In this document: positions 4,846 through 60,026 of the stretch, piece after piece
Numbering within the stretch: the first letter of the stretch is position 1
Layout: every line of letters starts with the position of its first letter
Assembly: GCA_903813345.2 (NCBI GenBank)
Contig: CAIIXF020000006.1
Location: 1,364,001-1,428,000 of the forward strand
Direction: 5' to 3'
From: Owenia fusiformis
Taxonomy: Eukaryota; Annelida; Polychaeta; Sabellida; Oweniidae
DNA: 64,000 bases
Notes under the pieces: model-generated
What the model saw: the letters and a program-made list of their open reading frames with translations, nothing else
Databases searched by the model: none
Told to the model about the DNA's origin: nothing
Program-made: the position numbers and the translations under genes

Positions 4846-4964
4846 GTAGAGCATAAATTGCACATTTAGTGGATTGCAGTGTATTAAATACCTGTGAGTA
4901 CAGATTTAAGGTATACTACACTAGGCTAACAACAAAAATGAAGATGTTTGCTAAAATACCCATA

Positions 4965-5175
4965 CAGCATATATACTGCAGGGTATAAAATACTCAAACA
5001 GTATGCATACTACAGGGTATAAAATACTCAAACAGTATACATACTACAGGGTATAAAATACTCAAACAGTATATATACTGCAGGGTTTAAATAACTCATA
5101 CAGTATATATACTGCAGGGTACAAAATACTCAAACACTATATACTGATATATACTGCAGGGTATAAAATACCAAC
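4965..5175. repeat. 34-bp tandem repeat, about five or six copies
   Basis: Units carrying CAGGGTATAAAATACTCAAA follow one another with period about 34 bp; the outer copies are diverged. It lies 120 bp from the 30-bp array and shares the GTATA theme. Confidence 0.75.
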
Positions 5176-6989: not shown

Positions 6990-7223
6990 TTATACTTTAG
7001 CATCATCAATGTCATCAAAATGTTTAGTACTGTTGGTTTTGTTTATAAGCTTTTCTTGCACCGCTATGCTGTCATCCATAAGCATAGAGTCCCCTGTGGT
7101 CGGGGTTTGCTTCAATTCAGGGGAATTAGGAGACAACTGTTCTGAGTCTTCACTGCCATTATCTGATGCCTTGTCACGGTTTTCAAATATAGACTTGTCT
7201 GGTGTTGTCACAAGAATATATTT
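6990..7223 (-). CDS. SLC6 last exon (cytoplasmic C-terminus and stop)
   Basis: 234 bp: 77 residues and TAA. A hydrophilic Ser/Asp/Glu-rich tail ([15 protein letters not shown]) ending FDDIDDAKV. Acceptor GTTTCAG. The opposite strand is also open here (7009-7227), a shadow of this exon. Confidence 0.9.
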   Translation of the reverse strand, partial: KYILVTTPDKSIFENRDKASDNGSEDSEQLSPNSPELKQTPTTGDSMLMDDSIAVQEKLINKTNSTKHFDDIDDAKV

Positions 7224-10200
7224 CTGAAACAGAAAAATCATTCATATTTATTTGATTAAGTTGATTGTTGGATTAATTTTTCATTGAGTCTGGATTATTC
7301 TCATGTAGTGTTTGACCTAGACGCTTAGTTATGGTAATATTCTGAGGGATGGATATCTGAATTTTATTTAGGCCTAACCATACATGTAACGCAAATGATT
7401 AGAATTGAAATGCCACACAAACCTCTTTTAATGTTGGCGCATCAGCCGTAAGCAGTGTGTAGAGAGCAACTACACCAATGGGCACAATAGAGGCCAGGCC
7501 CATACACCAGCCAATGCCATCAGCCCATCCTGGGTAGATGTATTCACCATACTTTGCACCAGAGTACTTTACAAAGCTGAATATCAGGATAGCCTGAAAG
7601 ATTCAAATTGCAAAAATATTTTAATTCAAAAATCAAATTCAAGTTCCAGAATCTTCTTTGTCATAATTAGAAAAACAATAATCCGCGCAATATATCTACT
7701 GCTATACTGAGTAGTTTTGTCCTCAACAAACAAAGTAGTTTTTCCTTCTATTTCCGGGCCACATCGAACTGATAACACTTACATCCAGCTGTAAATCGCT
7801 TTAAACTGAACTTATGATTATATGCATAAGACTGCTAAACAATTCATACACTTACTACAATGACAACAGGAGAGATGACCTTCCAGCAAATCCTCCACCA
7901 CCAACCAGGCTTATCTCCCAACATCTCTTTAATGTTCCCAGCAAACTTCTCATTGCCTGCAAAGAATAACATTTATTGGGACTGATCTTCAGACTGGAAT
8001 ACTGATCCCACACATATTTGACACTTAATAGCAAGATCATTTAGGGAACTCAATGCATTGTTAATCCCATGTTCATTTGAACCTAAGTTTTGTTTGTGTC
8101 GTGTCGTAGCACATAATCTAATAATATTATTAACTTTTGTTGTCAAAATGATTGGAATTCAAATATTTGAAAAGTAAGGGCTACTAATTATTCAAAAATG
8201 TCAAAACAACTTTTCAAGAAATAACAAATGCTAAAAAAATATTCAATCATCTTCGTTATCTTTTTCTGCGCTTACCATAGAACCAGTTGATGATGAGACA
8301 CTCGCAGACAGCCACAACAAGGACGCAGAATCCAGCAGCGTACCAGTCCATGAGCTGCAGAACGTACATGCCTCCCTGAATGCAACAGAGCAGAACATTT
8401 TAAAACACAGTCAATATTTGGCTCAAACTAGGGCTGTGATCCTATGTACAACATCATGTTTGATAAATCAACAAGTCGGCAGTTATTTGAAACTGACTCA
8501 TAAATGTTGACATAGAATCACAGAGCTAGGAATATCCACACCAGGTGCACCTCATTGTTCACTGACAATTTTAATCAAATTGTTTGTATTTTGGAGATGG
8601 CACTGTAAGTCAGGTACTGTCTTACCTTAGTATGAAGATCTGATCACATCTGATCTGATCTGATCTGAAGGTACTGATCACATTATCTGTGTAAAATGCA
8701 AACAGTAATACATCCCATATAAGGAATCCTTAGGTAACATTTATGCACAAATTATATGTTATTACAAATGATAGTTATTCATTGTATAACATGTGTACCC
8801 CTTGTGTTTTTTTGTTCAACAATATTTTTTGCGGACTCTTCACGCTTCACATGACAAGGACTGTTGTAGTCAACAAGGACTTGTAGTCAACAACAAGGAC
8901 CCATGTAGTCAACAACAAAGACTTGTAGTCAAACACTCGCTGCTCCATTGCACTGACAAATATCAGGAATAAACAAAAGAAAAACAAAGAAATCAACCTC
9001 CCACAATTCAAAGATTACCATGGGGATCAAACTGAGAAGAGACCAAAAAATTTCACCAATATAAAACATGACCTTTTCCACCTATTCTGATAGAAATATG
9101 AACATACTTATATAACTAGACTAATAATGAATTGATAAAGGATGAGTTCAAAGCATGGGCAGATGATTGCTGGCATTTTAGGAAGGGGGTTGCAAAATAT
9201 GTTAATGTTGTAAATTATCAGCATGTTTCACAAGGTCACACCATTACAATGAGTAGTGACATACAAAGTGACAAAAACACTGCTAGTAATCTTTAGTATT
9301 TTCGACAACCTTAGCTTTTGCAGATTAATGACATGGAAATGGAATGAGAGATGATATATCAATGATGGTTTATCCAGAAAGTTCTCATTACCTGACAAGC
9401 AAACAATAGGAATGAATGGACTTTTTAGCCATAGTGAATCCATAACTTGACCATTAAATAATAAACAAAAGGTGAATATGGTGCAAGGTGAAATTGATCA
9501 AAAGTGAATGTTTGCTAAATCTCCTCCGTAACCCAACCTTTAATAGAATGAAAAATAAATTGAAAAACCGACAAACAAATCTATGCATGAGCAAATGAGC
9601 GCTTGCAGCAACATGGTGTGAGTGGATGTGAATTAGTAATTCAAAATTTAAACTGTAACCAAATAAGGGGATAATTCAACAATAAGGATTTCCTGAACCC
9701 ATGTACTGGTATATACTTAAACCTAATTGAAATTTATACATGAGACAATGATAATCAAATATACATAATTTCACTGCCTATTTAACAACACAAGGACATT
9801 AAAACACATTAAAATAGCAGATTGCAATCAAATATTGTACATTGAAGTGTAGTTTCTGTGATTTAATTCCATTAAACATTCATGAGACAGTCATCTATTT
9901 TTGTATGTTGAACTATTGAAATAAAATGATGAGAAAACACAAAGGGCAACATTTGAAAATCAGACATCAGGCACTAATTATGGAATAGCTTTAATATTTA
10001 CAAATTCTTGAATAATTTGTTTCGTGTGCATCTGAACAATACATGTACATCATAATAATAAAACATTATATATTTTTACACTTAATACATTCACAATTAC
10101 ATAAAACTACATAACCTACATTTAAATATAAATAAAACAAACACAACTAAATCTATATCTAAAACTAAACAATCTAAAGCTACATTAAATAAAAATGTGT

Positions 10201-13200
10201 GTAGTGCAACATTTGGTGTAAAAGTATGATAGTGCTAGGTAAGTGTAGTGGCAAATGTAAAGTGAGAAGAAACACAGAATAAGGTGCAAAAATACAGTAG
10301 CATGTATAAAATACAGTCTAAAGAGCAATATGATCTTAGATCTTCTTATGACTAATCGAATCTGTGGGTTAAAATTGATACGCTGATATTAGATGGTATA
10401 TTGACCCACCCCAACCAAAATATGGTTCATTATGGTAATCACAGATATTATTTTTGATCCTGTAACCAATGGAGATTTATTTGATATGGTTTAAATAAGT
10501 ATGCAGATTTTTGATCTAAAATACTGTATACAATATAAACTGATAAATCCTATACATTCTATACTGTGCTTTTATTAATTTTGGTGAAACAGTCATTTTA
10601 CAATAATCCAAAAAACCACACCATCATGCACTTATGCAACACATTCCGGTAAATGTATGAATTCTGCAAGGATAAAGGAAGCATAAAGAAAGGTAAAGGG
10701 TAAACTTAAAGACGGCTTCTGAAAAATGTTATCTTATAATTTGGTAAGTTCTTGAAACTCTCCTTATCTCTCAAGAAAAAAAAGGCGTACAGAATCACAA
10801 CAGAGGATCGGGAAGATTTTAGAAAAAGGTCGCGATTTGGAGGTGTTCCTGCATATATTCACATCTCTTTTGGTTAGATGTTTTTTTGGTTAGGCCTCCA
10901 CCTGCAGTATTAATCTGGAATTGTCCGCAAAGCCTTTGAAATCTCAAACTATTTTGAACTCCAAGTCAATCATTGGTACTCTCGTTACATATTTAAAGTC
11001 ACTTGCACAAAAAGACATTACCCTTTCCTTTAACCATTTGCAGTAAAATATGATTCAGATCATTTAGTACAATGACACATGCTAAATATAAGTGTTGATT
11101 CAACAAGTTTTACTGTATTTAGTAAATGTAGTTGCCATAGATATGCAGGTTAGCACTTTCATATTTCATAGCATAAGCTTGGGCGCACTTATGTAAGACA
11201 TTAATATTCTCAACCTGTTTGAAGAGCACAGTGGTGAAGCTCTTGTTATCACAAGTGATAGAAATGATACTGCACTTGTTGAGAACCCAACAAGATCAAT
11301 TTCAAAACCTCAAAGCCCATTTTACAAGGACTCCAAAACCAGTGTATGTCAAAACACTGTCAAAACAAAATGGCATGTTTACTACTAGTCACATATTGTT
11401 GTTTTATCATAACAAATAAATTGATGTAACAATGGGACGCATTGCTAGGCTATTAGAATAAAAATGCAGGACAATGTTATATCACTAATTACGAACAAAC
11501 CTGGAGAATCATATTTTGGACAGTGTGTAATTAATGTACAAGCTGTTTGTCCTCTTTCTGCCATTAGAATAATGTAATTAACTTTGTTTTCCCCAAAACT
11601 AATTTTCCATAAGACAGAATTATCTTTTTCATTAGAATATCGATAACAAGTGTCAGGAAACTATAATTGAGCTATGGTTAATGATGTCAAGCAATTTGAA
11701 GTTCCAATTTAAAAAGAAGTGTTAATATCTATATTATCATCATGACAAATTAGACAATTAAGTACAAGAGGGGAAGGCAGAGGTGTTCTACATCTAAGAA
11801 GCTAAAGACACGCAGGGTTGGGTTAATCACTGATAAGCCAAGCAGTAGGATCATCCACACAACACCAAGCATATCTAACTATATATGCATTCACAAATCT
11901 TTACTCTCCGTGGCCTGGTACCCTTTGAAGAAAATCACCCACTTTGCTTCATCCAATTAGTTTGCTAGTATTTTATAAACAATTGATGTTTCGTCAAATT
12001 AGTAAGATGCCATCGGACAAAATGCAGGCAGAAGCACTGTTGTCTTAAGCATTAATCAGCGGCTGCTATATTAGCTTTTTATTTCATTTAAAATTTAGAA
12101 ACATCAAAAAGTTCATGTGAAAACATAAACTCAAACAATATATAGCTCCAACAGAAATATGCCGCTGACTAGCATTATGGATTAGCGATGTGAGGATATT
12201 TTCCGATACTAAGGCTGTGGGTGAGATGAGATGTGGAGATATGTGGCGTCTTGAATACCTGAGTGACACATGGTATTCCAAAAAGGAAAAGTAGCGTTGC
12301 TACGGCAATGGAGGTCAGCAATCTTCTCTTCCTGAAGATGGGGAACTCATCGCATAGACCCGTAATAACCGTCTCGAAGCCCACCATCTGTAGTGAGCAT
12401 AAATACATTATATGAACATGTGATCTTTATTATTATATGTATGTTATTCACCTGTGTAACGCAGGTCACACCAAAGCAAAAGAAAATGGTGGCGAGGATA
12501 CAGGCAGTGAGGAATCGTCTAAGTGGGGTCTGGTTCAGGACTGGAAATTCGTCACATAGCCCCGTCATTACAGTTTCAAAGTCAACCATCTACAGCAATA
12601 GTGTAAAACACAACATTCAACGAATGAACTGTATACCCACCTGCAGATCCCTCATGTATGGTGTAGTTTTGTTAGCCCCTGTACATACATATACATACAG
12701 AGTGGTTAAAGTGTACATTCTGCCAAACACCGAGAGAAAGAGAGATATACGAATGTGTACATTGATCAACCAATGAGAGCTTTTGCACCATAACCATATT
12801 AGAATGCTATGCAATAGCACATGACATCATTATAACGCATGAAGCCTTATAATGTGTTGAGAATAAAATTTTTAGTAGATGTTATCTCGGCTTTTGGAAA
12901 AATGAATGCTTTAGAATTACTCTGCAGTGAAGTGTATGACAGGTGGTAATGAGTATGAAATGCCAAGTAATAGCATGAACAGACGTGAAGTTCATACTAT
13001 GATATAATCCTTTTCAGATATATCTACGCATTGATTCATTCACAACCACCATGAGAGAAATACAGGGGGTAAAAGACTTATTAGCACATATAAATCACCT
13101 GGGTTGTACAAAAAATTCCTAATAAAAATCCGACGCTGGCTAGAATGCAAACAGTTAGAAATCGGTGTTTTGCAGATCGGCCCAAATACGGGAACTCATC

Positions 13201-16200
13201 AGCTAATCCCGTCACTACAGTCTCAAACTGCACCATCTATAATTTAAGTGACATCATACAATAGTATTAATTTCATTCGAATATTTCTAGTACTATTATA
13301 ATTACCACTAGCCTGAATGTAATTATGTAAATGATTGACAATATTTATAAAAATTGCATTGAAAAATAACATATATAAAAATGTATCAACTTCCGTGTAT
13401 ATTAACATGTGATGTAAACTTAACGCAAGTCAGAAGCCATGTATATTAACATGTAGATTACACATAAATGTATCACCCTGTATATTAATATGCATATCAT
13501 ACACAAGTGGGTCACCATGTATATAAACAGGTAAATTAAATAAAAATGGGTCTCCCTGTAAATTGAGAGTAAGATTATTCAAAGATGGGTCACCCTGTAT
13601 CATATTTACCTGACTTCCAATTCCAAGTAGGAAGAGCATGAAGAAGAAGAGCGCAGACCACATGGGTGCTAGCGGCATCAGACCTAAAGCCTCGGGGTAC
13701 ACAATGAAGGCTAAACCAGGCCCTGAAATCATAAAACATCTTAATCAATCATTATTATTAAGCTCAGCTATTCTTAACTCTTCATCAATCAAATCTTGAT
13801 TACATAAATTGTTTTGTTATTGTAGCTCTGAAGTGTCAAGTGAAACATACCCTAGATGTGCTCAGGTTGTGCTATATCTTTTAAAGCCCCTTGTAAAATT
13901 TGAAAGCCAGAGTGGTTTAAACTTTAATTGGGGCCTTTAAAAACTGCACAGAATGAGGACCATATTATTTTCCAGTTAGATGTTACTTTATAATTGTTTA
14001 CCTGACTTGATGACGTCCTCAACTGCCTGGCCATTCTCATGTGCCATGTAGCCAATCACAGAGAAGACGGCAAATCCAGCGTAGAGACTGGTGAAGAAAC
14101 TGACCAGGTTAATTATAATAGCATCCCTATAAGTAACAAAACATATTGTTATTACTTTTTGTTGATTGACAATACAATGTCAGATATATTCCCCAGACAC
14201 AATATAGACACATATTATAGAGGGGAAATCAAATGATTCAGAAAATGCTAATATCCAATAAAACAATTAATCAAAGTTACATGTACATAAGATGATCAGC
14301 AGTTAAAAATTGTTAAAATATTTTTGATGTAGAACAACAAAAACGAAAAACATTCCTTGGCTCACATAATGTTTCCATATAGGGTTTTTCTATTTTATAT
14401 CATTTAGAATAGACTATAATGAGAGCTACAGCTTCTTGGACTTGCAACAGGTCTTATACAAAAATATTTTTTGTGCTTTGATTAGAGGTAATGAAACAAA
14501 TAAATGACAACAGTCTGAAGCAGAGTCCCCAAAATGAGTTGCCAATTCAACTGATTTTTCAACGACTTGTCATAATTTTGAAGGTTTCCTTTGGCTAAGT
14601 TCCAAGTTTCTAATTACAAGTTTCTAATTACAATTCAAAAAATTAGTTAATGCTGCTGTTAAAAAGCGTGTGAGAATTTTCCTTCCAATAAAGAATGTTA
14701 TCCTAATCAGTGACTCTCCCTTTTTAAGAATCATAAATTTAAGTTTAGGTTATAACTATGGGAAGGGCAGGTACACTGAATGAACCCATAGAAGATATGG
14801 TACAAAGTTAACACCCAAATGCAGTTGTATAATAATAAATGTTAATATGTAATCAATAATGATGGTAGTTTGTAAACGCAGATGGTATAATCAACAATAC
14901 ACTGTATAACATACACAATTTCCTGTACCTCGAGCTAAGTCCGTTACCATGTATATCTTTAACATGTATAACAGATCAGGTGGTCCGCATAATCAAAAAA
15001 CTATTTTACTAATTTGTACTTTGGGGGTGCAGCATGAGACCAGTGGTGAATCATGAGATCTTGAGGGACCTAAAACTTTTTTCAAATATATACGAGGGGT
15101 GATCCAAAAGTCTTGGACGCCCTGCTCTAATTTTGTTGGTTTTTGATAAAATAACTTTAAACTTTCCAATAATACAGACCAACAACTTAACTACTTTGTG
15201 TATTAATTTCATGGTGAAATGATATAGTTTATGTAGTTTTCTCAATAGTTATTAATATAGTGACCCTGCCACCCGGAACGGTATTCGCACATGGCAACTT
15301 TCAGCCTTAAATGTTGCCGCTATTTGACTCGGTTTGCAAGTCTTGACAACTATCTTTCCTTAAATTTTGGATGTTAAACCATATTAGTTTACTCGCTTTG
15401 TTATCAGGCAACCAATTAATTGTGTTTTTATCATAATATTACATATAACAATGACCGTATATGTCAAGTTCTAAAAAATTGTCATCAGAAAATCAACCCT
15501 CATTCTGGTATCATTTTTTCTCCAAGATGGCTGCTGCAAGTCAGAACATGAAAGAAATCAAAGTGGAACAAAGAATACTACATTATATTTTCACTATTAT
15601 TGACCTTGAGCAGCTACCATATGCACAATACAGTCTAGATATGGCTCCATGTGATTTTCTTCCTTTTCTCCTAGTTGAAAGGAGGGTTGAAAGAAAATGT
15701 TTTTTACTCATTGGATGAGGTTTAGAGTGGCACTCCAGCAGCATTTGCATCACTTAAGCCATGGCGGTTTCATAAATGACTTTCATTCCTTGGTAAAGCG
15801 GTATGAATAATGTGTTCAAATTCGTGGAAAATATTTTGAAAAGTAGGTTTTAATATGTGAAGATGATGATAGCAGATGACACTCAGACTGAAAATCGGAA
15901 ATTCTCTCATATCATGACTGGTGCTAGGTTGTGCATCTGCACTTCAAGTATTTGCCATATTAAAACAGCTGTGACGTGATTTGCTATATTTAAATACCGT
16001 TCCGGGTGGGAGGGACCCGGTATCAAAAACTATTTAGAAAAGTAGCTATATTATATTATTTTCTGTTGAAACTTATACACAAAGTTGTTAAGATGTTGAT
16101 CCTTATTATCTGAAAGTTTCATGTAATTATATTAGAAAATAGCAAAGTTAGAGCGGGGCGTCCAAGACTTTTGGATCACCCCTCGTATATTCTGGGCAAG

Positions 16201-19200
16201 TCTGATTCTTGGGGTTTGATAAGATAAAGAAATTTTGGTTAGGTCAAATGATCTAGCCCTTATTCATTAAACCAAACATCAAATGGTCTAGGCCTTTTCA
16301 TTTGACCCAAACATCAAATGGCCTAGGGATTTTTCATTCGACCAAACATCAAATGGTCTAGGCCTTATTCATTCAACCAAACGTCAAATGATCTAGGCCT
16401 TATTCATCCAATTTGTTTTATTTAATGACAAAAAACAATTGTCTATTACAAAGCAGGAGGCAAGCATTTGCAAGCATTTTTACATTTTATCAAAACATAT
16501 TACAATGACAATCTCTCCAAAGTTTATTTTCAAAATTGAAGTTTTTCTATGAAAATGATTCTAAAAAGTTTCCAAAAGCTACATTGTATTTCTGAAGTAA
16601 ATTTTGTATTATATGTCTATTATGAAAATAACTTATTGGTCGAGATTTTCAAATCCATAGTCGATTGAAACACATGCAATAAACAAATGGTACAGTGAGA
16701 AAAAAGTGGCAAAGGTGTAAAGCAAGTGCATTTATAGTGTTAATGTACCTTGTAGAGAATGAAGGACTATTGTTAGTGAAGTCTACAACAACATGCATTT
16801 GACATAGACAAACACAAAACATGAACAACACTAGTTGGATAACAGAAATAATATGTCCAAAGAGCAACATTTTTGTGTGGGGGAGGGGGAGGGTTTATTA
16901 TGTGAACATCGATTTCATTTTCAAGAGGGCAGTTAGTCATGAAAAATCAATTTATTTCTGTGATCCATTTGAAGGAAAAAATCAGAGTTGCCAGTTTCTT
17001 AAGGTAGGTAGAGTAGAATGAAAGTAAGGTTAATTAACTTACATTTTCTACACAAAGTCAGTCTACCCTTACCACCTTAATAAGACACAAATACAGATAA
17101 TAAATAGGATTCCCTTTCCTAAGGAACAGCATCATCAGGTGTTTCATGCTTTACCTGGATAAAGAGATAAACAAGAAAGTAAGGCCTTTTCAATTTAAAT
17201 GTCTGTTTGACAGTGTTTGTCTGCTTTTCCAAAAATCTCAACCTGGTCAAATCTATTTTCTTGCACTTTTATGATATTTCTCTGGTTCAGAAGAACAATT
17301 TTAGAAATGAAGAGAAGGCCTGTTCACTTAGTCTCTGTATATAAAAATATTGACTATACAGACATTAAAACAGTATGGGCCTAAAAGAGAAATGAATCAT
17401 TAGAGAAAAGCCAAAGAATCTACAATCACATTTCAGTGACCATCTACCAACTAAGACCAACTACACAACAGATCTAGACAAAACAAACACTATTTATTTG
17501 TTGGGACATCGATGTGGTGTCAAAACAACAGTGTGTTGGTGCTACGGAAATTGGTGTTTGTTGCTATGGCAATGATACAAAGGTTACCACGGTTACCTGA
17601 AGCAGTTGTGATGGAATGTGTTATAACTGGCCATCGTTAACATACCACCCCAAGCTATGTTAGTGGCATAGAATAATTGGGTGGCAGCCGCAAACCAGAC
17701 CTAACAGATAAATAGAGTTGACACAACATCCATTATAAAGTAATTATACAAATATAACAGTAAAATTATCTATAAAATGTAAATGTGTTGGTGCTGCAGT
17801 GTAGCATGCATCTCTGTAGTGCAGCATGCGTCTTATGGACTGGTGTGAGGTTCCTTATGTCATGGTAAAATATTCTGTGTGTGGATTTATGCCACTCTGT
17901 CAAGTGGGAAATCCTGCATGTGGTGTCCCAAATATCTCTGTGGCATGTCACCTGGATGAAATAATTGTTAAAGAAGACAAGACGTGATTATTCACAGAAG
18001 ACACTTAGATACACAGAATGTACCCACACTTAACTTTGACCTGTTAAAGAGAAACACAAAAACTTAGTAGCCATCCTTGCAAAAGAAGCAGAGCGCCAAC
18101 GGTTTCTAAACATAAGTATGCAACAAAGCAGAACAGCTTTCCCAATAGCAGAAGCCAAATGCTTAAATATGCAGCATAATGGTTTGTTGCTAAGCAATTG
18201 GAGCGGTTGCTATGGTTACCTGTAACAATTGTGATCAAAGGTGTTGTAGCTGGCCATTGTGAGCATGCCACCCCAGGCAATATTTGTCGCATAGAATAAC
18301 TGAGTGGCGGCAGCAAACCACACCTAAAATAGTAGAAATCCCAAACAAGGGCACACAGTTCAACACCCACAGACATTTAAACATGGTGCATTTCAATAAG
18401 CAATTTTGTGAACAAAATAAAATGTTCAATGGCAGTTTTAAGGACATCCCCTGTCCCCAATTATTCAGTACATATATTTTTAGACTAATACATATTTATC
18501 TTTTGTGTTGAGAATGGTCTATTGGAAATTACAAAACTTGTCTTATGCTTTCAGTTTCATGAAGAAATGAAATTGGTAAACATGACATGATAATTTGTAT
18601 TTGATGTGAGCTTTAACTCAATCTTACCTCTGGCGATGCTAATTTACTCCAGACGGGAGTGACGAAATATAAAATTCCATCAGTGGCTCCCTCTAACGTC
18701 ACACCTCGTACTACAAGTACGGTTAACATAAGGTAGGGAAATGTTGCAGTGAAGTACACAACCTACAAGAGATAAATTCAGTTAGCTCATATCTTTATGC
18801 ATGTTACCCTTTAAAGAGTCTGGCTTCATCTGCACTCTCTAAATTACAGATGATTCTTAGCTAGCCAATTAGAATATGCAATATCAGTAAAAATGCTACA
18901 ATATCTGCCAGCACAGGTTCAAAAGCTCCCATTAAAGTATGAGCTCACTTTGATTCGGACTTTATAATCAAAATTGCAGAAAATCATTTGCAACAATTAG
19001 AGGTTAGCATGGCTTCTGTGGGATTCAGGGTATATTCTTGCACGGACACTTATATCAGTACAGGTACATATAATATATTTTATATTCATAACAGTTGCTG
19101 AATATCCTTATACAGAGAGAGCATTTCCATTTATAACAATGAGGATGTTGTGGCGAGATTTCTAAACAACAATAACCTGATACTCAACAAAACAAAACAT

Positions 19201-22200
19201 TAATAAATCACCATTTGGGGAAAAGTAAATGTATTTATAAGCTCCTTTATATAAGAATAATAACCATGTGATGGGTGAAGTACAAATGATTTCCTTGAAT
19301 ACAAAAATTGAAAATTGAGTAATTTAAAAGAAGACAGCTTTAGGAAGAGAGTAAACAGAGTAACATCAAAGGTGTATAGGGTGGACCATTTATCAATGAA
19401 TTCATCATAGCAGGAACCAATCTCAGCTCAGTAACTGTCAACTTTCAACTGACTTGTACCTCAACCTGACCCATGAACCAAATAATCTGAACTTAACTCT
19501 TTCCTGATTCACTTGATGCATGGCCCAAACACAGGGAATCCCTGTGGGCCTAAATAACCCAAATTAATCTGGACTCGATTCACTGTGATTTAATATGTCC
19601 AAGTTTGAGTTATATAAAAGAGTACATACCTTTCCTGAAGATTTGATGCCCTTACATACAATGAGAACCACAAGAATCCAGGCCAGGAGAAGACAGAGGC
19701 AGACATGCCACCTGACATTCCCAATATTGTCAATGCCATGGATGGTCTCATTCACATTCAACAGCTTATACCTGAAAGAAAAATCAAAGAAATGACATTT
19801 GATATCTGTCTCTCTGTGTAAAGGGGAGAAATGTAGAGGGGAGGATTGTGGAGGGGAAAAAAGGGAGGTGCTGATAAGGGTATATGCATGTTAATGAAGT
19901 AACAATGTAAGAAACTGATTGGGATTGAATATAACATATCAATATAATAATCACTAGACAACAGCAACGCCAAAGCGTAGCAAATCCCATCGAACAGCCA
20001 TGGCTAGCATTTTTACAAATAAAGTATAAAGCAAAAATGGCAGTCATTTTTCAAAATGGCCACCTTATGGCCATGCTTATAGTATTCCAAACCAAATATG
20101 AACAAAATCGCTCCACTACTTTTTGAGTTATAGTAAAATACGTTAAATAGCGAGTAAAGGCCGCCATTTTTCAAGATGGCTGCCATGTGCTTCTTTAACA
20201 TCTATATTTCTAGCTTTATTAATGTCCTATATAATTTTTTTACATTTAAAACATATTGCTATTAGAGTTTTACATATTGTACCTAAATTACTGTAAAATC
20301 GGCACTAAAATGGCCACCATTTTTAAATGAGCGGCCGTTTTGAGAATCGGCTTTCAAGCAGAACTTCTACCCCCATAGGCTAACGTACGTAACGTACAGA
20401 CGGAGGCGTTCCCTATATCCCTCCAAAACTTCGTTCGATAGGATAATGAAGATATATAACAGATAATTAATGGCCTGTATTCCCACAATGATAGAATGGT
20501 CAAATATTGAGACAGTGAATTTCACTACGAATGAAGCAAATCCAGAAAAATATCAAAATGATAATAGTTAAACCACCATATGTTCATCATAAAATTACCA
20601 GATATTCTATCAGATTAAGTCTGTTTAATATTGTAAAATTGATTCTTGTCCAACAACAAGCGCATGCGTAACCTATAACTAACACTTCAACACCCACTCA
20701 GGTGAATGTATGGATTTTTCACTTGATGAAGAGAAATAAACATTTCTTTTACTTTCCTTCAAGGAATAACATGTTTATTGGACCAAAGAACTTCACACAG
20801 AATAGATGTGTTTTAATACTATAACTGAGTGGTCAAACTCGTGTGCCAACTACTGAATTTCTAAAAATAATATGTTTATTGAATTAGAAATATTTTCATG
20901 CAATTGCACTTTTAACAGTATGTATATACACTGTAATCTAACATAACACACAACCAAATAATAACAATAGTTCACCCATCCATGTGAGCTAAAAATGTTG
21001 AAATATGTATTATTGTGTACAAAGTCTCTTATCCCAAGTATCACATGGTAAAAGCATGATAAATACAGGTTAAATACTTGTTTTTGGCTTTTCAATGAAA
21101 AATTAATGACAAGTTAAACCAATACAGAATCACCACCTGTATTATGAAATGGGGGTGGAGATATAATCATGACATTATTATCACCCACACATACAAATAA
21201 TCTCTTAATAAGTTAAAGTCAGACTGTATACTGCATGCAGTTCTATGTGCTAGGTTAAAAATCCAATATATCTTGCAAAACACTTAATATTAAATTACAG
21301 CTTTAATAAAGCCAATTATATGTAAACAGCTCAATATTTGACAAATAAAATAATTTAGACATAGGATATAATAAAAATCAGCTTTTTAGAATAATCAAAT
21401 TTTTATGTAAAACAGACAAGTGAAATACATTGAAACAGATGTAAAATTAGCAATGTTAAGAAAACGAGAAAACACACCAAGAGCAAGTTCAGACAACGTG
21501 AGATTTATTGAAGGCCATTATGACAAATGCAGACATTGCTTGTCTGGCTGTAACATGTACAGTTAGTTAATTTATCGCTCCAAAGTCGAATGAAACGACA
21601 TGTATATGTAAAATACATATACACACATACAATACTATAAAAACTGACCCCCTCACTGATACAATACTAGACTAAGTTATAAATCTGAAGACAGTTGTAG
21701 GAAAACCATCTGCATAAACAATTTTCTGAAGTACTTTTATTCCAATTTTCAATATTCTGAGGAGTTGGACCAGGGGGACCCTTCTATAGAAACACATGTG
21801 ACATATAAGTACACATGTAAAGTGACCAGGATTGAACAAATTGAGGGCAGCTAAATCAACTGTAAGTTCAATACAGACAGATATATGGTATATTGATTGT
21901 CAGGGAGAAGTAATTGAGTGCAAACTACTATCAATTACTATACTGTTAAAAGTAAAATCTATTGCCACATCTACAACTTATTCAAACTGAGTCGCTATCA
22001 GAAAGCCATAAAGTCATTTGATTGGTAGACGATTGTTCAAGGTCTCTTAAGAGAACTGTAATGAGATCAAAACATGTTCTGCCTAAACATGTTCTAAACT
22101 TTTGAATGAAGGAAATGTTGTGTATGATTTTATGACACAACATTTAGGTTTGCCACAACATTTTAAACAAATATAGTAATTTCTCTCAAACTGAGGTACA

Positions 22201-25200
22201 AAATCCCCTGACCAAGTGTGTTGTTTTTATTGACAAAAGTTGAAGAGTCAAAAAAGATATATGCATTTCTGGATCTTTGTATTATTCTCTGACATTACCC
22301 TGACCCATATAATTAAATTCTACACCTTAACCATTTTAGCCATTTACAAGAAAATTCTTGAATTTCCTAATTCCAGGTCAAAGACCCAACTTGTCCCTGA
22401 CTCAGCACTGTTTTGAGTGCAAAGCTTTTGCAGACTGAAGTTGTGAACTTTTTTTTGGTACAGAAACAAGCAAACAGAACTTTGAGCTCTGTAACTATAA
22501 AGAAAACAGTCATGACCTCTACAATGTGAATGATACATGTGCACAGAGCATGATTGTATGTAACACCTCAGGAAGAATTCTCAAGATCTCATAAGTGAAA
22601 AAATGTCATCATTATGACTCAACAGTGTACAACCCTAAATATTGAATTGATCTTTATAATCTTTGTTGAATAAATCTACAAAGTTTGAGTGACAGGTAAA
22701 AAATGTAATCTCTTTCTCAAACAATTGAACTGATTTTATTCAAAAATAAATTGATTTATTCAAAAATAAATAAAGATGCAGACTACTGTACATTAAATAA
22801 AGTGAGATATAGCTAATCTGGTAGAAATGCTAATTTCTAAATCAATAAGTGACAGAACTTTTTGAATTGATTATAAAACAAAATAAATTATGAAAATAAT
22901 TCCTTGAACTAGCACGAGTAATAAGTGCAAACTTTAACTTAGCTTGGCAAAAAATTTGTTCATTTTTCTCATTGAATTTGAAAACCTTATAATTTTATAA
23001 CTTGCATTTTCAAATGATTTTATGTTAGACATTCCTAGAATCAAAGTGATGATGCTTTATAATACCTCAACATGCATCGTGGTTTGTTGTAAAAGACCTC
23101 CCACAAGGGAAAAGGTTGGCATTTTGACAAAATGAAAATAGGGCTCAAATTCCCTACCCTGGGAGCAACCTTGTGAGTCAATTTTCCACCCTTGAGAGTG
23201 AATATTAGCTGATAAAATATTATCATTTACTGGGATTACTGGGAATATGCATTTCAAAAGCACCTACTCCAGGGATGAAGTACGATGTAAAAATCCCAAC
23301 CCTGGGATAATACTGTATCTCAAATTCTGTCCCTCTCTTAGTGGTACACAAGTGCTTAACTGTTCCTCTCACTATAGGCTCACAGCATTCTTTTAACTCA
23401 CAGGTATGGACCAATTGAGAATCATATTCAATTTAGTAATTTAATGCATGTTCATCTCCAGACCAAGCATTTAGTTGGGAGATAAAAGAATGAATTATAA
23501 ACCAGAACAACGACAACGCCAAAGCGTAGCGAATCCCATCGAACAGCCATGGATGGCGTTTTTACAAACAAAGTATATAGCAAAAATAGCAGCCGTTTTT
23601 CAAAATGGCCGCCTTCTACCAAAAGTGTCATTAGATCATGTGCCATGCTTATAGTATTCACACACCAAATATGAACAAAATCGCTCCACTACTTTTCAAG
23701 TTATAGTGAAATACGTTAAAATGGCGGCCATTTTTCAATTTTTTTTTCAAAATGGCCGACTTCTACCAAAAGTGTCATAGGACAGTGTGTCATGCTTATA
23801 GTATTCACATACCAAATATGAACAAAATCGCTCCACTACTTTTCGAGTTATAGTGAAATACGTTAAAAACAGCGAGTAAAGGCCGCCATTTTTCAAGATG
23901 GCTGCCATGTGCTTCTTTAATATCTACATTTCTAGCTTTATTAATGTCCTATATAATTTTTTTACATCTAAAACATATTGCTATTATAGTTTTACATATT
24001 GCACCTAAATTACTGTAAATTCGGCACTAAAATGGAAATCGGCTTTCCAGCAGAACTTCTACCCCCATAGGGTATATGTGTACAAAATATGAACAAAATC
24101 GGACCAACGGTATTTGAGTTATTGCCCAGACGTACGTACGGACGGATGTACGGACGGACGTACGTACGTACGGACGGACGGAGGCGTTCCCTATATCCCT
24201 CCGAACTTCGTTCGATGGGATAATAAAAGTAGCTTACTTCCAGTATTCCTCCGTTGGAGATGTTCTTGCAGACTTGTTGAGACTCAGAGCACTTGTCATG
24301 TTGAGGCTTGTCATGTTGTAGTCTCCACTAATGTTATAACTACTTCCTATTCCATTCACATCAACCAAAGTCTGTATAGTAGTTGTAGTACCTTCTACTG
24401 TACTGTTAGAGGTATCTGAAATATAGATATCATATATACATGTAAATTGGTTATATAATTACATTACATTGGATCTACTGCTCTGGAACGTTTTCTGTGA
24501 CAAACAAAGATTCGAAAGAGTTGTGGTTGCAGCACTTAATTATTAGTTGTCATATTCCTTTATAGTCTATTAGAATTATTTCATTTCTTAAATCTTTTAC
24601 CTCTTGGATCATTAAGGATGCAGTACCGGGTCGGTTTTCACGTCTGTTTGCGCAGGTTTGACTTCCGGTTTGAGAAAGCTAGCTCCCAAGAACGTCATTT
24701 TCGCATTTAGTCTTATTCAAAAATTATAGTTTATTTCGATAATGGTGTTTCCAGAAAATAATTAAATTGCAAACATTTTATCAAGCATATTTTATCCCTT
24801 TCACTTTTATGGGAAAACTTGTTCTTGAGTCGCAATTAGTGGATACGAAAACCAGGGTTCGGAAGGTGCCAGCTCTATTGAAAACTCAAAAAGTAAAAAG
24901 ATTCATTTTGGGTGGGTAAAATATTTTTTTTATTTTGTAATTACCGAGCGGTCAATCCTCTTCATATTGCACTTGGATGATGATAACATCATAGTGATAC
25001 ATTGTAAAAAATATGAGCAAAATCTAATGTCTGGAACTTTTTCTACGCTGACCTGGTACTGCATCCTTAAGTCAAACACCATGAAAAGCAGGGACGAGCC
25101 GCTATTGGTGAAATGCTCTAAAACTCAGCTAATCAATTGGACTATTGGGAGGGGGGGGGGTAATGTTTTAACATCTGGTTGAATTCTACTTACTATTTAT

Positions 25201-28200
25201 TCCTATTAGATCCTGCACCACCTTGCTCATACCATGTGCATCCAAGCACATCTCAGTGTTCCACGCATTATTACAATGAGTCCATGGCATGAGTGAAGTG
25301 AATGAACCAAAGAGGTAGTAGAGTGATAGCGCAATGATCACATTATAGTAGATGCAAACAAATGCATTGATAACACAGTAACTGATGCCAACTCCTGGAA
25401 ATAAACAAACAGGTGGATTTGTAGTTTACAATTTCTCTTTAATAATGTCAGTTATGATGTGATGATACTGTGTGAGAAAATTGATTATGGATACTGATTG
25501 TGAAAGCTAGAAATGTTTGAAGATAAAGAGTTTGATTTAAAACATGATTTGCAATTGACCACTAATGCCATGAATTTTTGAACAAGTTCTGCAACGCTGT
25601 GTACCCTTTGAGTTTGTTTTTACAAAACAGTACTCGATAATTTACATGTAAAAGGGAAGGTACTGTATAGCTCTTTATTTTACATTCCCCATGTATGTGT
25701 CACATGGTATTCCATCTTAATTTTGTATGTAATTTTTGATTCAAAGTGCAGTCAGTTAGGTACTCACCTTTGAACAGAGGGCATACTTTCTTATATATAG
25801 TAAGAGAACCAACTCCAAAGTATTGCCCAAAGCTATACTCCATGAACAATAGCGGGAATCCAATGACAACCATCATCAGCATATAAGGCAGTAGGAAGGC
25901 TCCTGAAAGACCATAATATCATGGGAGACGGTCAATTTGAAGGATTTAAGGAAGGTGTGAATGTGCATCATATTCGTAATGAATGTCAGAGCAAGGTTGT
26001 AAATAAGGGAGAAGCTCTAAGAGAAGCAAACTTTTGGAAAGGGGTATGCATCATTGGCATTTCAGAACTTCTAGTCATCATTGAAACAAGTGGTTCAATA
26101 TTCAGGACTTGTGGTATTTACATCATATTCTGGGTCAGAACAACGAGCTGTTTGGAAACTACTATGATAAACCCGCAATCAATTTTCTCAATAACATAAA
26201 AGCTGAATGTTTATGTAAAAAATGTGTCAATGATAAAACATTAGAGGCACAATGCATCATTAGATAACAAAATTCAAACAATAACACAACACTTCCTGAA
26301 AGCTCTCATATAAGGTGACTTAGTTTGAACCAGGGCCCTGGAATAATCAACAGGCACCTGTCTTAGTCACATAGTGGATTCTGAGTCTCTCTCTGAAGAC
26401 AATAATATTCTGTTGATATCAGACCATGTGACATCAAATACTATCCCCAAGCAACAAAGAAAAAACAAACAAGTCCTGATGAAACATCCTGCTTTTATGA
26501 TGCAAAGAGCAACGGATATTACATAATCCTGAGTAATGACTTTTTCGCCTGTGGTCTGGGAAAGTGCTATCAGTAATATGCACTTTAATTAAATCTAATT
26601 TCCGCATCAAACACATAATGGTTGGTCAAAGTGGGTCAGTGGCAGATGGCAGGTTACTTAACTTCTGAATCCAATTCTCTGACTACAACACATGATTTTA
26701 GATTGTGATTTTCCTTGGTGTATTCTAATAAATATACATTTTAGAGGACAGATCTGAAGTCAAACTCTTTCAAAGGGTATGATCCTTCAACTTTGAGCTT
26801 TCATGAAAAGCTAGCAGGAAAAAAGACCTTGGGAAATTAGGGAGTGATGTTATCTTGATATGAGGGAAGTCCATGTTATATTTACAACTGCATATTATTT
26901 CCTCATAGATGATACTATTTGATAGAGGAATGATATGAATCTAATGATCACTTAATCAACAATTGTATTAATTAATGTTTGTTGTGACGTAACAGTTACA
27001 AACACGCAAAATTTCAAAAAGATTTGTGCAATAATTATTTATGATATTAAATTTCTTGAGATATCTTTACCTATAAATCAAGGTAGGTAGGGTCAGATCA
27101 TTACTACCTTGACCATTAATTCTGTTTAAGTATCCACACTATAATAGGAATTTGAATAATGTACATCTCCTCATAAAAGTATCCAACAGACCATAGAATT
27201 TGACATTTGAAGAACGCTTAAATGTCTTGTTGAAGACAAGATACAATATTATGAGAGTGTTCATTTTGACAGCCTAATGTTACTGAAGACAACCTTCCAA
27301 ATTCAAATTCCTATACATGCATTGTTGGCAAAGATTATGAATCAATCAGACAGCTTGACAACTTTAATTATTTAATCTAGTAAGAATGCCAGGGTGCATA
27401 TAAAGACGATTTCGAGGCACAGAGGCTGACCATAACACCTAAAACGATATTTGCCTTTGCTTTTAAATATATTATAAAAAGGATGTTTAAATCATATTCA
27501 AATTTCAGGCTCAGTCTATATTTAAAAATTCCGGTGAATACCCTGATAACAGGATATTTATAGTAGCAGTAAACGTGAAGTTGCTACTGCACTTAAGAGG
27601 AAATTTTAAAAATATTGTTCAAGAGATCACGACCACCAAAATGAAGATGCTCAAGTGGAGGAAAACCTTATCTTCTAATAAGATAGCAGAGACCCTGAAT
27701 CACAATTGGATAATAACACTGCCCTCTGACTATTAAAGATGATTTCAAACCTGATCATAACAATCACAAATGGTCCTTCCATGGCTTTGATATATTATGT
27801 CTGAAATGAATGTTCTGTACTTATAGGCAGAAAATTCAGCATCTAATTTTCAGACTACATTTCTGATTATAAATATTAAGTGCTACTTCAAAAAATTGTG
27901 TCTGATGAACTCTTAAGAGTGTCAAAACAAAGACAAACACTTGCAGAGGGTAAAGACAAGAGGGTTTACCCAAGAGCCAAATAATTCACAAATTTAATAG
28001 AATAAATACAAACATTAAAACAGAATAAATGCTCCCCTCTAGAGGTTCACATCCTCACAAGCTTTTAACCTAGACTGATAATTACTGACAGTTGAACTCT
28101 ATTTTATTTCTTTCTTGGAAAAAGATATTTTCCCAAGGTGAGACTGCCAACACAAGGGTTAAGTTGTGAATAGTGTATAGATATCAAAGTGGCTTAGTTA

Positions 28201-48209: not shown

Positions 48210-48707
48210 ACATCTCATATGTTAGATCCATCTATATGTACAATAACCTTCATACATACTGAATAAAAAATGTTAAATTTTAACCAGTTCATCCCATATT
48301 TTTTACTTTTTGTCTGGGTCATAAAAAGGCAATCCCAAATTGGGTAAAGGTGTTATAAACCAACAAGTGGCAATATATATGTCCATTTAATAGTCTCAAA
48401 CTATTTACAGTACTTGCATACGTCATAATTTTACCAGACACTACCACACTTATGATAACTGCTACTGAAAACTTAGCCTTGTTCCATAAGTCCCATGCTA
48501 TGTTCTGAATTTTTATACCTCTTCCAAGTACCATTAAATGAGACAATGTCTGGCATTTGTCCCATTAACTGTCTTTTCTCTTTTGGCATTTGTGCTTATA
48601 TCATTGTCTAAGAGTACATGAATTATTTGCAAATATTCTCAAAATCATGTCCAGCATTTCCCATAACAGGAGTTCCACATGTGGAACTGAAGGAATAAAA
48701 CTAATAG

Positions 48708-49232
48708 TACAGCAATTACACTGGTAGAACTATAGGAATTACACTGTCCAGGAATTACAATGAGAGAACTGTTGGAATTACACTGTCCAGGAATTACAAT
48801 GAGAGCACTGTTGGAATTACACTGTCCAGGAATTACAATGAGAGAACTGTCGGAATTACACTGTCCAGGAATTACAATGAGAGAACTGTCGGAATTACAC
48901 TGTCCAGGAATTACAATGAGAGAACTGTTGGAATTACACTGTCCAGGAATTACAATGAGAGAACTGTTGGAATTACACTGTCCAGGAATTACAATGAGAG
49001 AACTGTTGGAATTACACTGTCCAGGAATTACAATGAGAGAACTGTTGGAATTACACTGTCCAGGAATTACAATGAGAGAACTGTTGGAATTACACTGTCC
49101 AGGAATTACAATGAGAGAACTGTTGGAATTACACTGTCCAGGAATTACAATGAGAGAACTGTGGGAATTACACTGTCCAGGAATTACAATGAGAGAACTG
49201 TTGGAATTACACTGTCCAGGAATTGGGAAGTA
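48708..49232. repeat. 39-bp minisatellite, about 12-13 copies
   Basis: Near-identical units containing AATTACACTGTCCAGGAATT and ACAATGAGAGAACTGTTGG. Since 39 is a multiple of three and the unit has no stop in one frame, a 216-codon open frame (MRELLELHCPGIT repeated) results. I do not regard it as a gene. Confidence 0.95.
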
Positions 49233-49400
49233 TATACTGATGAAAACTGTGGGAATTACACTGTGGAACTATTGGAATTACACTGTGGAACTATTGGAAT
49301 TACAATGTGGAACTATTGGAATTATACTGATGAAAACTGTGGGAATTACACTGGTTGAACTGGAGAAATCATACTGCTGGAACTGTTGTATTAACCTGAG
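49233..49400. repeat. Variant satellite units beside the 39-bp array
   Basis: Units around TGGAACTATTGGAATTACACTG (about 21-23 bp), and two copies of CTGATGAAAACTGTGGGAAT. They share GGAATTACACTG with the 39-bp unit and look like its shorter precursor or offshoot. Confidence 0.75.
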
Positions 49401-49546
49401 AGAACTTTAGAAATTACAATGTGGACCCTTTAAGGCCTTAGGAATAACATTCGGAGAACTCATCATGGTTGGTTCTGGATGAAGTGAAAAAGAAAGATTA
49501 TCACATATTATTATGGTCGGTAAACAGGAGAAGTATTGGCACATTA

Positions 49547-58670: not shown

Positions 58671-60026
58671 GTACAAAATGTCTCCACCAATGGGTGAATG
58701 TGTACAAAATGTCTCCACCAATGGGTGATCCCATCGAATGATTATCCTGAAAATAAGTAGATAAGACTTTACCGACACAATTTGAGGACGGAAAATCCAA
58801 AGTGGCCACCTTAAAATTTACCCAGAATGCCCCGAAATTAGTTAGTTCTAGATTTTCATACTAAGAACCACCCCTGAAAATTTGAAATTCATCCATCAAA
58901 CAGTTAACCAGAATACATGTAAACAAAACTTTACAGACAAGATTTTAGAATGGAAAATACAAAATGGCTGCCTTGACATTTACCCAGAATGTCAAAAAAC
59001 TTATCAGTTCAAGATTTTAATACTAAGAATCATCCTTGAAAATTTGAAATTGATCTACCAAACGGTTCACCTAAAAACGCGTAGACAAGACTTTACAGGC
59101 AAGATTTTAAGACGGAAAATCCAAAATGGCTGCCTTAACATTTATCCAGAATGCAAAAAACTAGTCAGATCTAGATTTTCATTTTAAGAATCATCCCTGA
59201 AAATTTGAAATTGATCTTCCAAAGGGTTCACCTGGAAATGCATAGACAAGACTTCACAAGTTCACAGACAAGATTTTTAAGACGGAAAATCCAAAATGGC
59301 TGCCTTGACATTTACCCAGAACACCCAAAAACTAATCAGATCTAGATTTTCATACTGAGAATCATCCCTGAAAATATGAAATTGATCTACCAAATGATTC
59401 ACCTGAAAACGCGTAGACAAGACTTTACAGACAAGAGTTTAGGACGGAAAAATCCAAAATGGCCGACAATAAAAAAGTGATTATGAGTTTTTGCTGACTT
59501 CCTTTTACAAAATTGTCACATATAACCACTGTTAACAATAACATAGGCTTTTACAACAAAGTACACCTGAAATTATTTATAAAGCTACTAAATAGTTAAA
59601 GTATGAAAACTCAAAAACACCATTCAATATGATACAAAGTATTATTGCACGCTAACTTTTCTTAAGACATTCAAAATAGCTGACATGATTGAGCTAACAG
59701 GTCCAAAACCTAATCAGATGTAGAATGAAGAAAGCTGAACAAGATATTAAAGATTTAAAAGCAACCGTGAAGCCGTTTGCAGACAAGGATTTTAGCATTT
59801 GACTTCAAAATGGCCGACAGGAAGTAGGTATCGAGTTAAATCTTTTTCATCCACATCTGTAAGCACTTATAAGTAATCCCTGAAAATTTGAAGCTGATAT
59901 CTGTAGCGGTTTTGTAGAAAACTGCCGGATGTACGGACGGACAGACAGACAAACAGACGGACGGACGGAGGGACTGACGGACGCACCTAGGCCGACAATA
60001 TGGCCCCACACTATGTGGTGGGGACA
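58671..60026. mobile_element. Helitron-like or related dispersed element with internal tandem repeats
   Basis: Left ATGTCTCCACCA (in a 32-bp duplicated segment, 58666-58724) and right TGGTGGGGACAT (60014-60026) are inverted. Near the right end there is a GACG microsatellite (59934-59985). The body, 58755-59470, has about four copies of a 160-170 bp unit with CTGAAAATTTGAAATTGAT and ATCCAAAATGGC. The layout mirrors the three Helitron-like copies, but the termini differ and no CTRR end was found. Confidence 0.5.
58755..59470. repeat. 160-170 bp tandem repeat, about four copies
   Basis: Units share GGAAAATCCAAAATGGC, ACATTTACCCAGAATG, AGATCTAGATTTTCAT and CTGAAAATTTGAAATTGAT in the same order. 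Confidence 0.8.

What the first reader, a model, noticed from the sequence alone, without database searches (positions are those of the whole stretch)
12259..13236. Three tandem alternative exons for the TM8-IL4-TM9 segment of one SLC6 transporter
Three homologous exons (46, 46 and 43 codons), each with its own acceptor and donor and all phase 0, lie in a row. All keep the start MVxFETVxTGL, the gate motif DEFP and the end TQ, but the loop after DEFP and much of TM9 differ. Each protein can use only one TM9, so mutually exclusive splicing is the natural reading. Exons 10b and 10c are only 64 nt apart, short enough that steric hindrance could prevent their joining. I do not know of a described SLC6 gene with this arrangement.
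Basis: partly seen in the sequence, partly recalled or inferred. Interest (0 to 1): 0.9.

Follow-up and report, generated by a model that had tools for sequence, protein, structure and literature searches.

The report
Transporter gene with three swappable exons
One animal gene for a sodium-coupled small-molecule transporter carries three interchangeable copies of the piece that forms part of its binding pocket, so splicing could make transporters with different substrate preferences from a single gene.

Summary
Confirmed: three intact homologous exons (138, 138, 129 nt; phase 0) lie on the minus strand of a complete SLC6 gene (681-684 codons; nearest solved relative GlyT1). They encode the end of TM8, IL4 and TM9 and form one clade, so they arose inside this gene. 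The b-c gap (64 nt) is the shortest of 148 intervals measured in SLC6 genes here (next 130), so joining b to c is probably blocked; for a-b and a-c I have no mechanism.

New: (1) the gene has a second tandem pair, the TM6b exon (104 nt, 33/35 residues identical), where using both or neither truncates the protein; six isoforms are possible. (2) Three other SLC6 genes of this genome have intact tandem copies of other exons: TM8 x5, TM7 x4, TM2 x2. (3) The three exons put Gln, Asp or Gly at residue 440, the position of LeuT Ile359 and TauT Glu406, known to affect substrate choice.

Best reading: mutually exclusive exons that retune the substrate pocket. No transcripts were available, so splicing is inferred; exons a and b also fit the family profile less well than most. 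Tandem exon swapping is a known kind; my paper searches showed no SLC6 case.

The parts
31885..32101 (-). Exon with start codon, N-terminus and TM1 (217 nt)
   Evidence: Open frame, donor GAG|gtaaga; gene model
25768..25902 (-). TM2 exon (135 nt)
25233..25394 (-). TM3 exon (162 nt)
24238..24415 (-). EL2 exon (178 nt), with several N-x-T/S motifs
19630..19771 (-). TM4 exon (142 nt)
18628..18762 (-). TM5 exon (135 nt), ends in phase 0
18220..18323 (-). TM6b alternative exon, copy 1 (104 nt, not a multiple of 3)
   Evidence: 33 of 35 residues as copy 2, 19 of 22 differences at third positions; splice sites; both or none gives an early stop
17597..17700 (-). TM6b alternative exon, copy 2 (104 nt)
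14002..14126 (-). TM7 exon (125 nt)
13610..13722 (-).
13099..13236 (-). Alternative exon 10a: end of TM8, IL4, TM9; pocket residue Gln440
12452..12589 (-). Alternative exon 10b; pocket residue Asp440
12388..12451 (-). 64-nt gap between 10b and 10c, shortest of 148 intervals in the sampled SLC6 genes
12259..12387 (-). Alternative exon 10c (129 nt); pocket residue Gly440; of the three the most like the single-copy exons of other genes
8276..8375 (-).
7856..7956 (-). TM11 exon (101 nt)
7423..7593 (-). TM12 exon (171 nt)
6990..7223 (-). C-terminal exon with stop codon (234 nt)

Best explanation
Shown: a complete SLC6 (Na+-coupled neurotransmitter/amino-acid symporter) gene holds three intact tandem copies of its TM8-end/IL4/TM9 exon and two of its TM6b exon. 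Inferred: each mRNA takes one copy from each cluster (mutually exclusive splicing). The b-c pair is kept apart by the 64-nt gap; the a-b and a-c pairs by unknown regulation and by failure of a protein with an extra TM9. Inferred with less certainty: the choice changes the transporter's central pocket, because the copies place Gln, Asp or Gly at residue 440, the LeuT Ile359 / TauT Glu406 position, together with different IL4 and TM9 sequences. The copies would then be substrate-tuning cassettes, 10c being closest to the ancestral form. The confidence given (0.8) is for exclusive alternative exons; for the substrate step it is about 0.42, as in the novel case.
For: One open reading frame of 681 or 684 codons results with any of the 2x3 choices. 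Pfam SNF E 3e-208 (isoform 1c); best solved relative GlyT1, E 2e-172. Splice sites of all five alternative copies are good. Differences concentrate at third positions (29/57, 30/60, 30/48; TM6b 19/22). Fully neutral divergence reproduced the observed identity in 0 of 20,000 trials for each of the three tested cases. a, b, c are monophyletic among 40 exon-10 sequences (support 0.98; a+b 0.88), so they arose in this gene. For TM6b, both or none stops at codon 373 or 329. Intact tandem exons recur in three other SLC6 genes. b-c gap 64 nt against 130 for the next of 148; a 5'ss-to-branch-point threshold of about 50 nt is cited in work on vertebrate exclusive exons (PMC7969005, passages). The LeuT 359 column holds Q/D/G; counting along the ungapped alignment, TauT 406 is in the same column. 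In print: I359Q lets LeuT carry tryptophan (PMC9599917, passages); [quoted passage not shown]
Against: No RNA evidence. Using none, two or three of the triplet keeps the frame, so the frame does not enforce exclusivity there. Copies a and b match a profile of the single-copy exons (41.5 and 32.7 bits) less well than most of the 37 single-copy exons do (27.4-76.1, median 58.5; c 52.7); b would rank second lowest, so faster, partly relaxed evolution is possible. Pairing between introns was no better than shuffles (six comparisons, z -0.7 to 0.7). The two TM6b copies are alike in the pocket, so that cluster does not suggest a substrate switch. The pocket claim rests on sequence alignment, not on a model or an assay.
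Confidence: 0.8

Rival explanations
1. One copy (most likely 10c) is the working exon; 10a and 10b are old duplicates, seldom or never spliced in, on the way to decay.
For: 10a and 10b score lower against the exon profile (41.5 and 32.7 bits; c 52.7; single-copy median 58.5). In the same call, 10% neutral decay of c gives 32.1 bits on average, the score of b, so a short neutral spell is compatible with b. Partial exon copies are common in SLC6 introns of this genome.
Against: No stop or broken splice site in any copy; third-position excess; fully neutral divergence gives the observed identity in 0 of 20,000 trials (this does not model one constrained and one free lineage). All keep the DEFP motif and the G..T end.
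Confidence: 0.12
2. The copies are alternative but not exclusive: two may be joined to make longer proteins or non-productive mRNAs used for dosage control.
For: All three are phase 0, so joined forms stay open (a+b 730, b+c 727, a+b+c 773 residues); the a-b gap of 509 nt is of ordinary length (median of 148 intervals 496.5).
Against: A second TM9 would break the LeuT-fold topology (established knowledge of the family, not tested); the b-c gap is probably too short to splice; in the same gene the TM6b pair cannot be joined in frame.
Confidence: 0.08
3. A variant of the best reading: the exons are mutually exclusive, but the choice serves expression, trafficking or regulation through IL4/TM9 rather than substrate choice.
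For: The loop after DEFP and TM9 vary more than the TM8 end; the TM6b pair, alike in its pocket, shows that tandem exons can be kept here without an evident pocket change.
Against: The first variable residue of the exon is the pocket position, and it differs in kind in all three (Q, D, G), D occurring in none of 36 other SLC6 cores aligned from this genome.
Confidence: 0.35

Closest known systems
SLC12A1 (NKCC2), three mutually exclusive copies of one exon
   Same: A cotransporter gene with three tandem homologous exons, one used per mRNA. PMC9741552 (passages only) mentions a third mutually exclusive exon in SLC12A1; that the exons lie in a transmembrane region and tune ion affinity is my recall.
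   Different: A different carrier family. Here there are two clusters in one gene, and the swapped segment is TM8 end/IL4/TM9 with a substrate-contact position.
NALCN channel, alternative selectivity-filter exons (exon 15 or 31)
   Same: Alternative exons swap a decisive selectivity residue within one gene; reported in the pond snail among other animals (PMC3557258, abstract read).
   Different: An ion channel with a selectivity filter (EEEE, EKEE or EEKE); here a LeuT-fold symporter and its substrate pocket.
SLC6 glycine transporter GlyT1 (SLC6A9)
   Same: Best-scoring solved relative (E 2e-172); same family and motifs.
   Different: The window gene has Ala335 and Ser367 where GlyT1 has Ser and Asn at the LeuT T254 and N286 positions, and tandem alternative exons.
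Human tandem duplicated exon substitution events (236 events in 214 genes)
   Same: Same general arrangement: neighbouring homologous exons that replace each other; ion transport genes are prominent (PMC9741552, passages).
   Different: 'SLC6' does not occur in that paper's main text (supplements not seen).

Membership tests
SLC6 / SNF family (Pfam PF00209) | Full-length match to the family profile | tested here: met
   Isoform 1c: E 3.1e-208, 693 bits against a cut-off of 27, profile positions 1-523 of 524
SLC6 transporters with a canonical Na1/Cl- site (a subset; not needed for family membership) | Ser/Thr at LeuT T254 and Asn at LeuT N286 | tested here: not met
   Ala335 and Ser367. Among 35 full-length TM6b exons counted, Ala occurs in 2, the two window copies; among 38 TM7 exons Ser occurs in 1, the window's. 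It is a divergent SLC6 member, not claimed to be a canonical Na+/Cl- one
Mutually exclusive tandem exons | Neighbouring homologous exons of the same phase and similar length with intact splice sites | tested here: met
Mutually exclusive tandem exons | Copies under protein-level constraint, no stops | tested here: met
   weaker for 10b
Mutually exclusive tandem exons | Transcripts contain exactly one copy | not testable with these tools
   No RNA data
Mutually exclusive tandem exons | A mechanism that enforces exclusivity: frame (TM6b pair) | tested here: met
   104 nt; both or none stops early
Mutually exclusive tandem exons | A mechanism that enforces exclusivity: steric gap or RNA pairing (triplet) | tested here: inconclusive
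   b-c gap 64 nt, shortest of 148; no pairing signal; nothing found for a-b
Substrate-switching cassette | Copies differ at a known substrate-contact residue | tested here: met
   LeuT 359 position = Q/D/G
Substrate-switching cassette | Isoforms differ in uptake | not testable with these tools
   Needs expression and an uptake assay

The most novel reading that the evidence does not exclude
A single SLC6 gene uses splicing to choose its substrate: three exclusive exons put Gln, Asp or Gly at the LeuT-359 position of the central pocket, combined with two TM6b exons (six isoforms). The SLC6 family of this animal has evolved such cassettes repeatedly, for TM2, TM6b, TM7, TM8 and TM8-TM9 in four genes, as an alternative to gene duplication for broadening its uptake spectrum.
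Probability: 0.42. Interest if true: 0.82.

Novelty: new variant of a known kind. Interest (0 to 1): 0.66.

Why it matters
SLC6 transporters clear neurotransmitters and take up amino acids, and how their substrate choice evolves is usually studied between genes. Here nature may have built the pocket-residue swap into one gene, with most of the protein held constant, so the effect of the TM8 position (LeuT 359) could be measured on natural isoforms. The recurrence in three further paralogs, each with a different exon multiplied, suggests that this gene family is prone to exon-cassette evolution in this lineage.

Tried and rejected
Decayed copies: set aside because open frames, splice sites and third-position excess are kept; a short neutral spell in 10b is not excluded.

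Assembly or haplotype artefact: rejected for the triplet, whose copies are only 53-63% identical at DNA level.

Two neighbouring genes instead of one: rejected, since the other exons used as queries have one strong match each in the window and the model is continuous.

Docking/selector RNA pairing: no signal in six comparisons of four stretches (three whole introns or gaps and the first 400 nt of the intron after 10c), 30 shuffles each; a weak test with one genome.

One phage search gave nothing.

An IQ-TREE run timed out, and an earlier script failed on its thread setting; FastTree was used. dS was undefined (saturated) in the NG86 estimate for all three triplet pairs, so no dN/dS ratio is quoted for them.

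Papers that did not help: the CreaT model paper (PMC7148354, passages) says nothing on this residue in the passages seen; the burying-beetle paper (PMC12599511, passages) counts 9 of 23 SNF loci as alternatively spliced without naming the event type there, so alternative splicing in SLC6 genes as such is not new.

Corrections made on checking: my notebook gave 107 nt for the TM6b exon, the exact model gives 104; it gave 12 copies for the TM5 minisatellite, searches show 10 partial copies and the full exon. The median of the 148 intervals is 496.5 (489 was over 151).
Full report
On the minus strand three homologous exons follow one another: 10a 13236-13099, 10b 12589-12452 and 10c 12387-12259, of 46, 46 and 43 codons, all phase 0, each with its own acceptor and donor. 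They align with 22 invariant columns, among them F-E-T, T-G-L, D-E-F-P and the final T-Q. The gaps are 373 nt (exon 9 to a), 509 nt (a to b), 64 nt (b to c) and 3883 nt (c to the TM10 exon).

The gene is complete. Seventeen exons were placed, five of them alternative copies. Joined by their splice sites they give 681 codons with 10c and 684 with 10a or 10b, no internal stop, from 32101 to 6990. The 10c isoform (1c) matches Pfam SNF over nearly the whole profile (E 3e-208), and its best-scoring solved relative is the glycine transporter GlyT1. The window lies in a 498-Mb genome. Its taxon was not tested.

A second cluster sits in the same gene and is not in the finding. The TM6b exon occurs twice, at 18323-18220 and 17700-17597, 104 nt each; 33 of 35 residues agree, while 19 of the 22 DNA differences are at third positions. 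Because 104 is not a multiple of 3, using both copies or none gives a stop at codon 373 or 329. For this pair the reading frame demands exactly one copy. For the triplet it does not: none, two or three copies keep the frame.

Are the copies functional? Differences between exon 10 copies sit mostly at third positions (29 of 57, 30 of 60 and 30 of 48; binomial P 0.005, 0.006 and 3e-5). If all divergence were neutral, the observed amino-acid identity was reached in 0 of 20,000 trials for each of three tests (a from b, c from b, TM6b copy from copy). That simulation does not model one constrained and one free lineage. Against my reading: scored against a profile built only from the 37 single-copy exons of other loci, 10c gives 52.7 bits, 10a 41.5 and 10b 32.7; leave-one-out scores of the 37 range from 27.4 to 76.1 with median 58.5. 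So 10c is ordinary, while 10a and 10b have changed faster, and a short spell of relaxed selection in 10b cannot be excluded. In a FastTree tree of 40 exon 10 sequences, rooted on L038, a, b and c form a clade (support 0.98) with a+b inside it (0.88), so the duplications happened within this gene. Copies a and b share a loop three codons longer than that of c.

The 64-nt gap is unusual. Among 154 neighbouring pairs of full SLC6 exons in L001-L040 and the window, six are fused exons; of the other 148 intervals the b-c gap is the shortest, the next is 130 nt and the median is 496.5. Only this family was sampled, so the genome's shortest introns are unknown. Any branch point at least 15 nt from the acceptor would lie within 49 nt of the donor. 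A threshold near 50 nt is cited in work on vertebrate exclusive exons (PMC7969005, passages); whether it applies in this animal is inference. No intron pairing better than shuffled sequence was found.

Other SLC6 genes of the genome. Searches with the family and with window exons led me to fetch 40 stretches covering the TM6b-TM10 part; two pairs belong together, so 38 other loci, some partial and some near-identical to each other. The search lists are lower bounds, so there may be more SLC6 genes. Scanned with five exon profiles, only the window gene has more than one full exon 10: 37 other loci have one and one locus (L026) has none. Intact tandem copies of other exons occur in L001 (TM8 exon, five copies), L003 (TM7 exon, four copies) and L037 (TM10 exon, two copies, 94% identical in DNA, probably recent, in a partial locus). 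Two further searches led to L041-L043; L041 holds two intact TM2 exons, by position and order those of the gene that continues in L034. In the window gene the TM7 and TM8 exons are 125 and 113 nt, not multiples of 3; the copies in L003 and L001 keep the same splice phases, so there too the frame favours one copy. The first TM8 copy of L001 has a GC donor. TM1-TM5 were surveyed only through search hits, and TM11-TM12 of the other genes were not surveyed.

What the exon swap changes. Aligned with LeuT, the exon begins two residues after Ser355; the column of Ile359 holds Gln (a), Asp (b) and Gly (c), residue 440 of the isoforms. In 36 other SLC6 cores of this genome the column holds M 11, G 10, L 4, V 3, I 2, T 2, Q 2, F 1, W 1, and never D; some of these rows are near-duplicates, and in the partial locus L037 the residue may be misread. 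Counting along the ungapped alignment, the same column is residue 406 of the taurine transporter. In print this position matters: I359Q makes tryptophan a transported substrate of LeuT, and the position is described as important for specificity in other transporters (PMC9599917, passages); I359 lines the pocket in a LeuT-Phe structure (PMC7035281, passages); [quoted passage not shown] Hence the proposal that the exons retune the substrate pocket; it is an inference from sequence.

The gene is a divergent SLC6. LeuT T254 and N286, ligands of Na1 (PMC7035281), correspond to Ala335 and Ser367, where GlyT1 has Ser and Asn. Among 35 full-length TM6b exons the position is S 32, A 2 (both window copies), T 1; among 38 TM7 exons N 34, D 2, S 1 (the window's), T 1. 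Its ion coupling may therefore be unusual.

Comparison with what is known. Exclusive tandem exons are a known kind. PMC9741552 (passages) counts 236 human events in 214 genes, mentions a third exclusive exon in SLC12A1 and does not contain 'SLC6' in its main text. NALCN swaps selectivity-filter residues by alternative exons (PMC3557258, abstract). Searches for exclusive or duplicated exons with SLC6, glycine transporter, neurotransmitter symporter or mollusc gave no SLC6 case that I could recognise in the listings (one search looked for SLC6 expansion in bivalves). Only the held open-access library was searched, and most listed papers were not read. One of them reports alternative splicing at 9 of 23 beetle SNF loci without naming the event type in the passages seen (PMC12599511). 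I therefore file the finding as a new variant of a known kind.

Verdict. Alternative exons of one gene: very likely. Exactly one copy per mRNA: likely, unproven. Choice of substrate by splicing: plausible, a little under even odds. Transcripts, sister genomes and an uptake assay are the missing evidence.

Noticed in passing
window 18323-18220 and 17700-17597 (minus): A second tandem alternative exon pair (TM6b) in the same gene; each 104 nt, so exactly one must be used to keep the frame.
   Followed up: yes
L001 3791-9630 (+): An SLC6 gene with five tandem intact copies of the TM8 exon; the first has a GC donor, and copies 3-5 are alike (DNA 89-96% identical).
   Followed up: partly
L003 3131-6078 (+): An SLC6 gene with four tandem intact copies of the TM7 exon (74-90% amino-acid identity; NG86 dS 1.0-1.7 in five of six pairs, undefined in one).
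   Followed up: partly
L041 467-598 and 876-1007 (+): Two intact tandem TM2 exons, by position those of the SLC6 gene that continues in L034.
   Followed up: partly
L037 2059-2160 and 2357-2458 (+): Two TM10 exon copies, 94% identical in DNA, in a partial SLC6 locus of a gene cluster on C5.
   Followed up: no
L032 3440-1737, L031 5461-4331 and 3049-2647, L043 (10 partial copies, 124-nt period), L004 7799-8291, L008 1711-1424, L020 42-233, L021 8604-8681: Pieces of SLC6 exons (about 7-36 codons, often an exon edge) multiplied into minisatellites inside introns, e.g. about 20 copies of the start of a TM7 exon, mostly at 61-nt period. This may show how tandem exons arise in this genome.
   Followed up: partly
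window, codons 335 and 367 of the SLC6 gene (TM6b and TM7 exons): The LeuT T254 and N286 positions (Na1 ligands) are Ala and Ser, unlike the other SLC6 exons counted in this genome; ion coupling may be unusual.
   Followed up: partly
window 62047-63511, 48707-49425, 58737-59474, 4952-5174: Tandem repeat arrays seen in the self-comparison (whose output was cut).
   Followed up: no
window 20072-20313 and 23791-24035: Two 94.7% identical stretches in introns of the SLC6 gene, perhaps copies of one mobile element.
   Followed up: no
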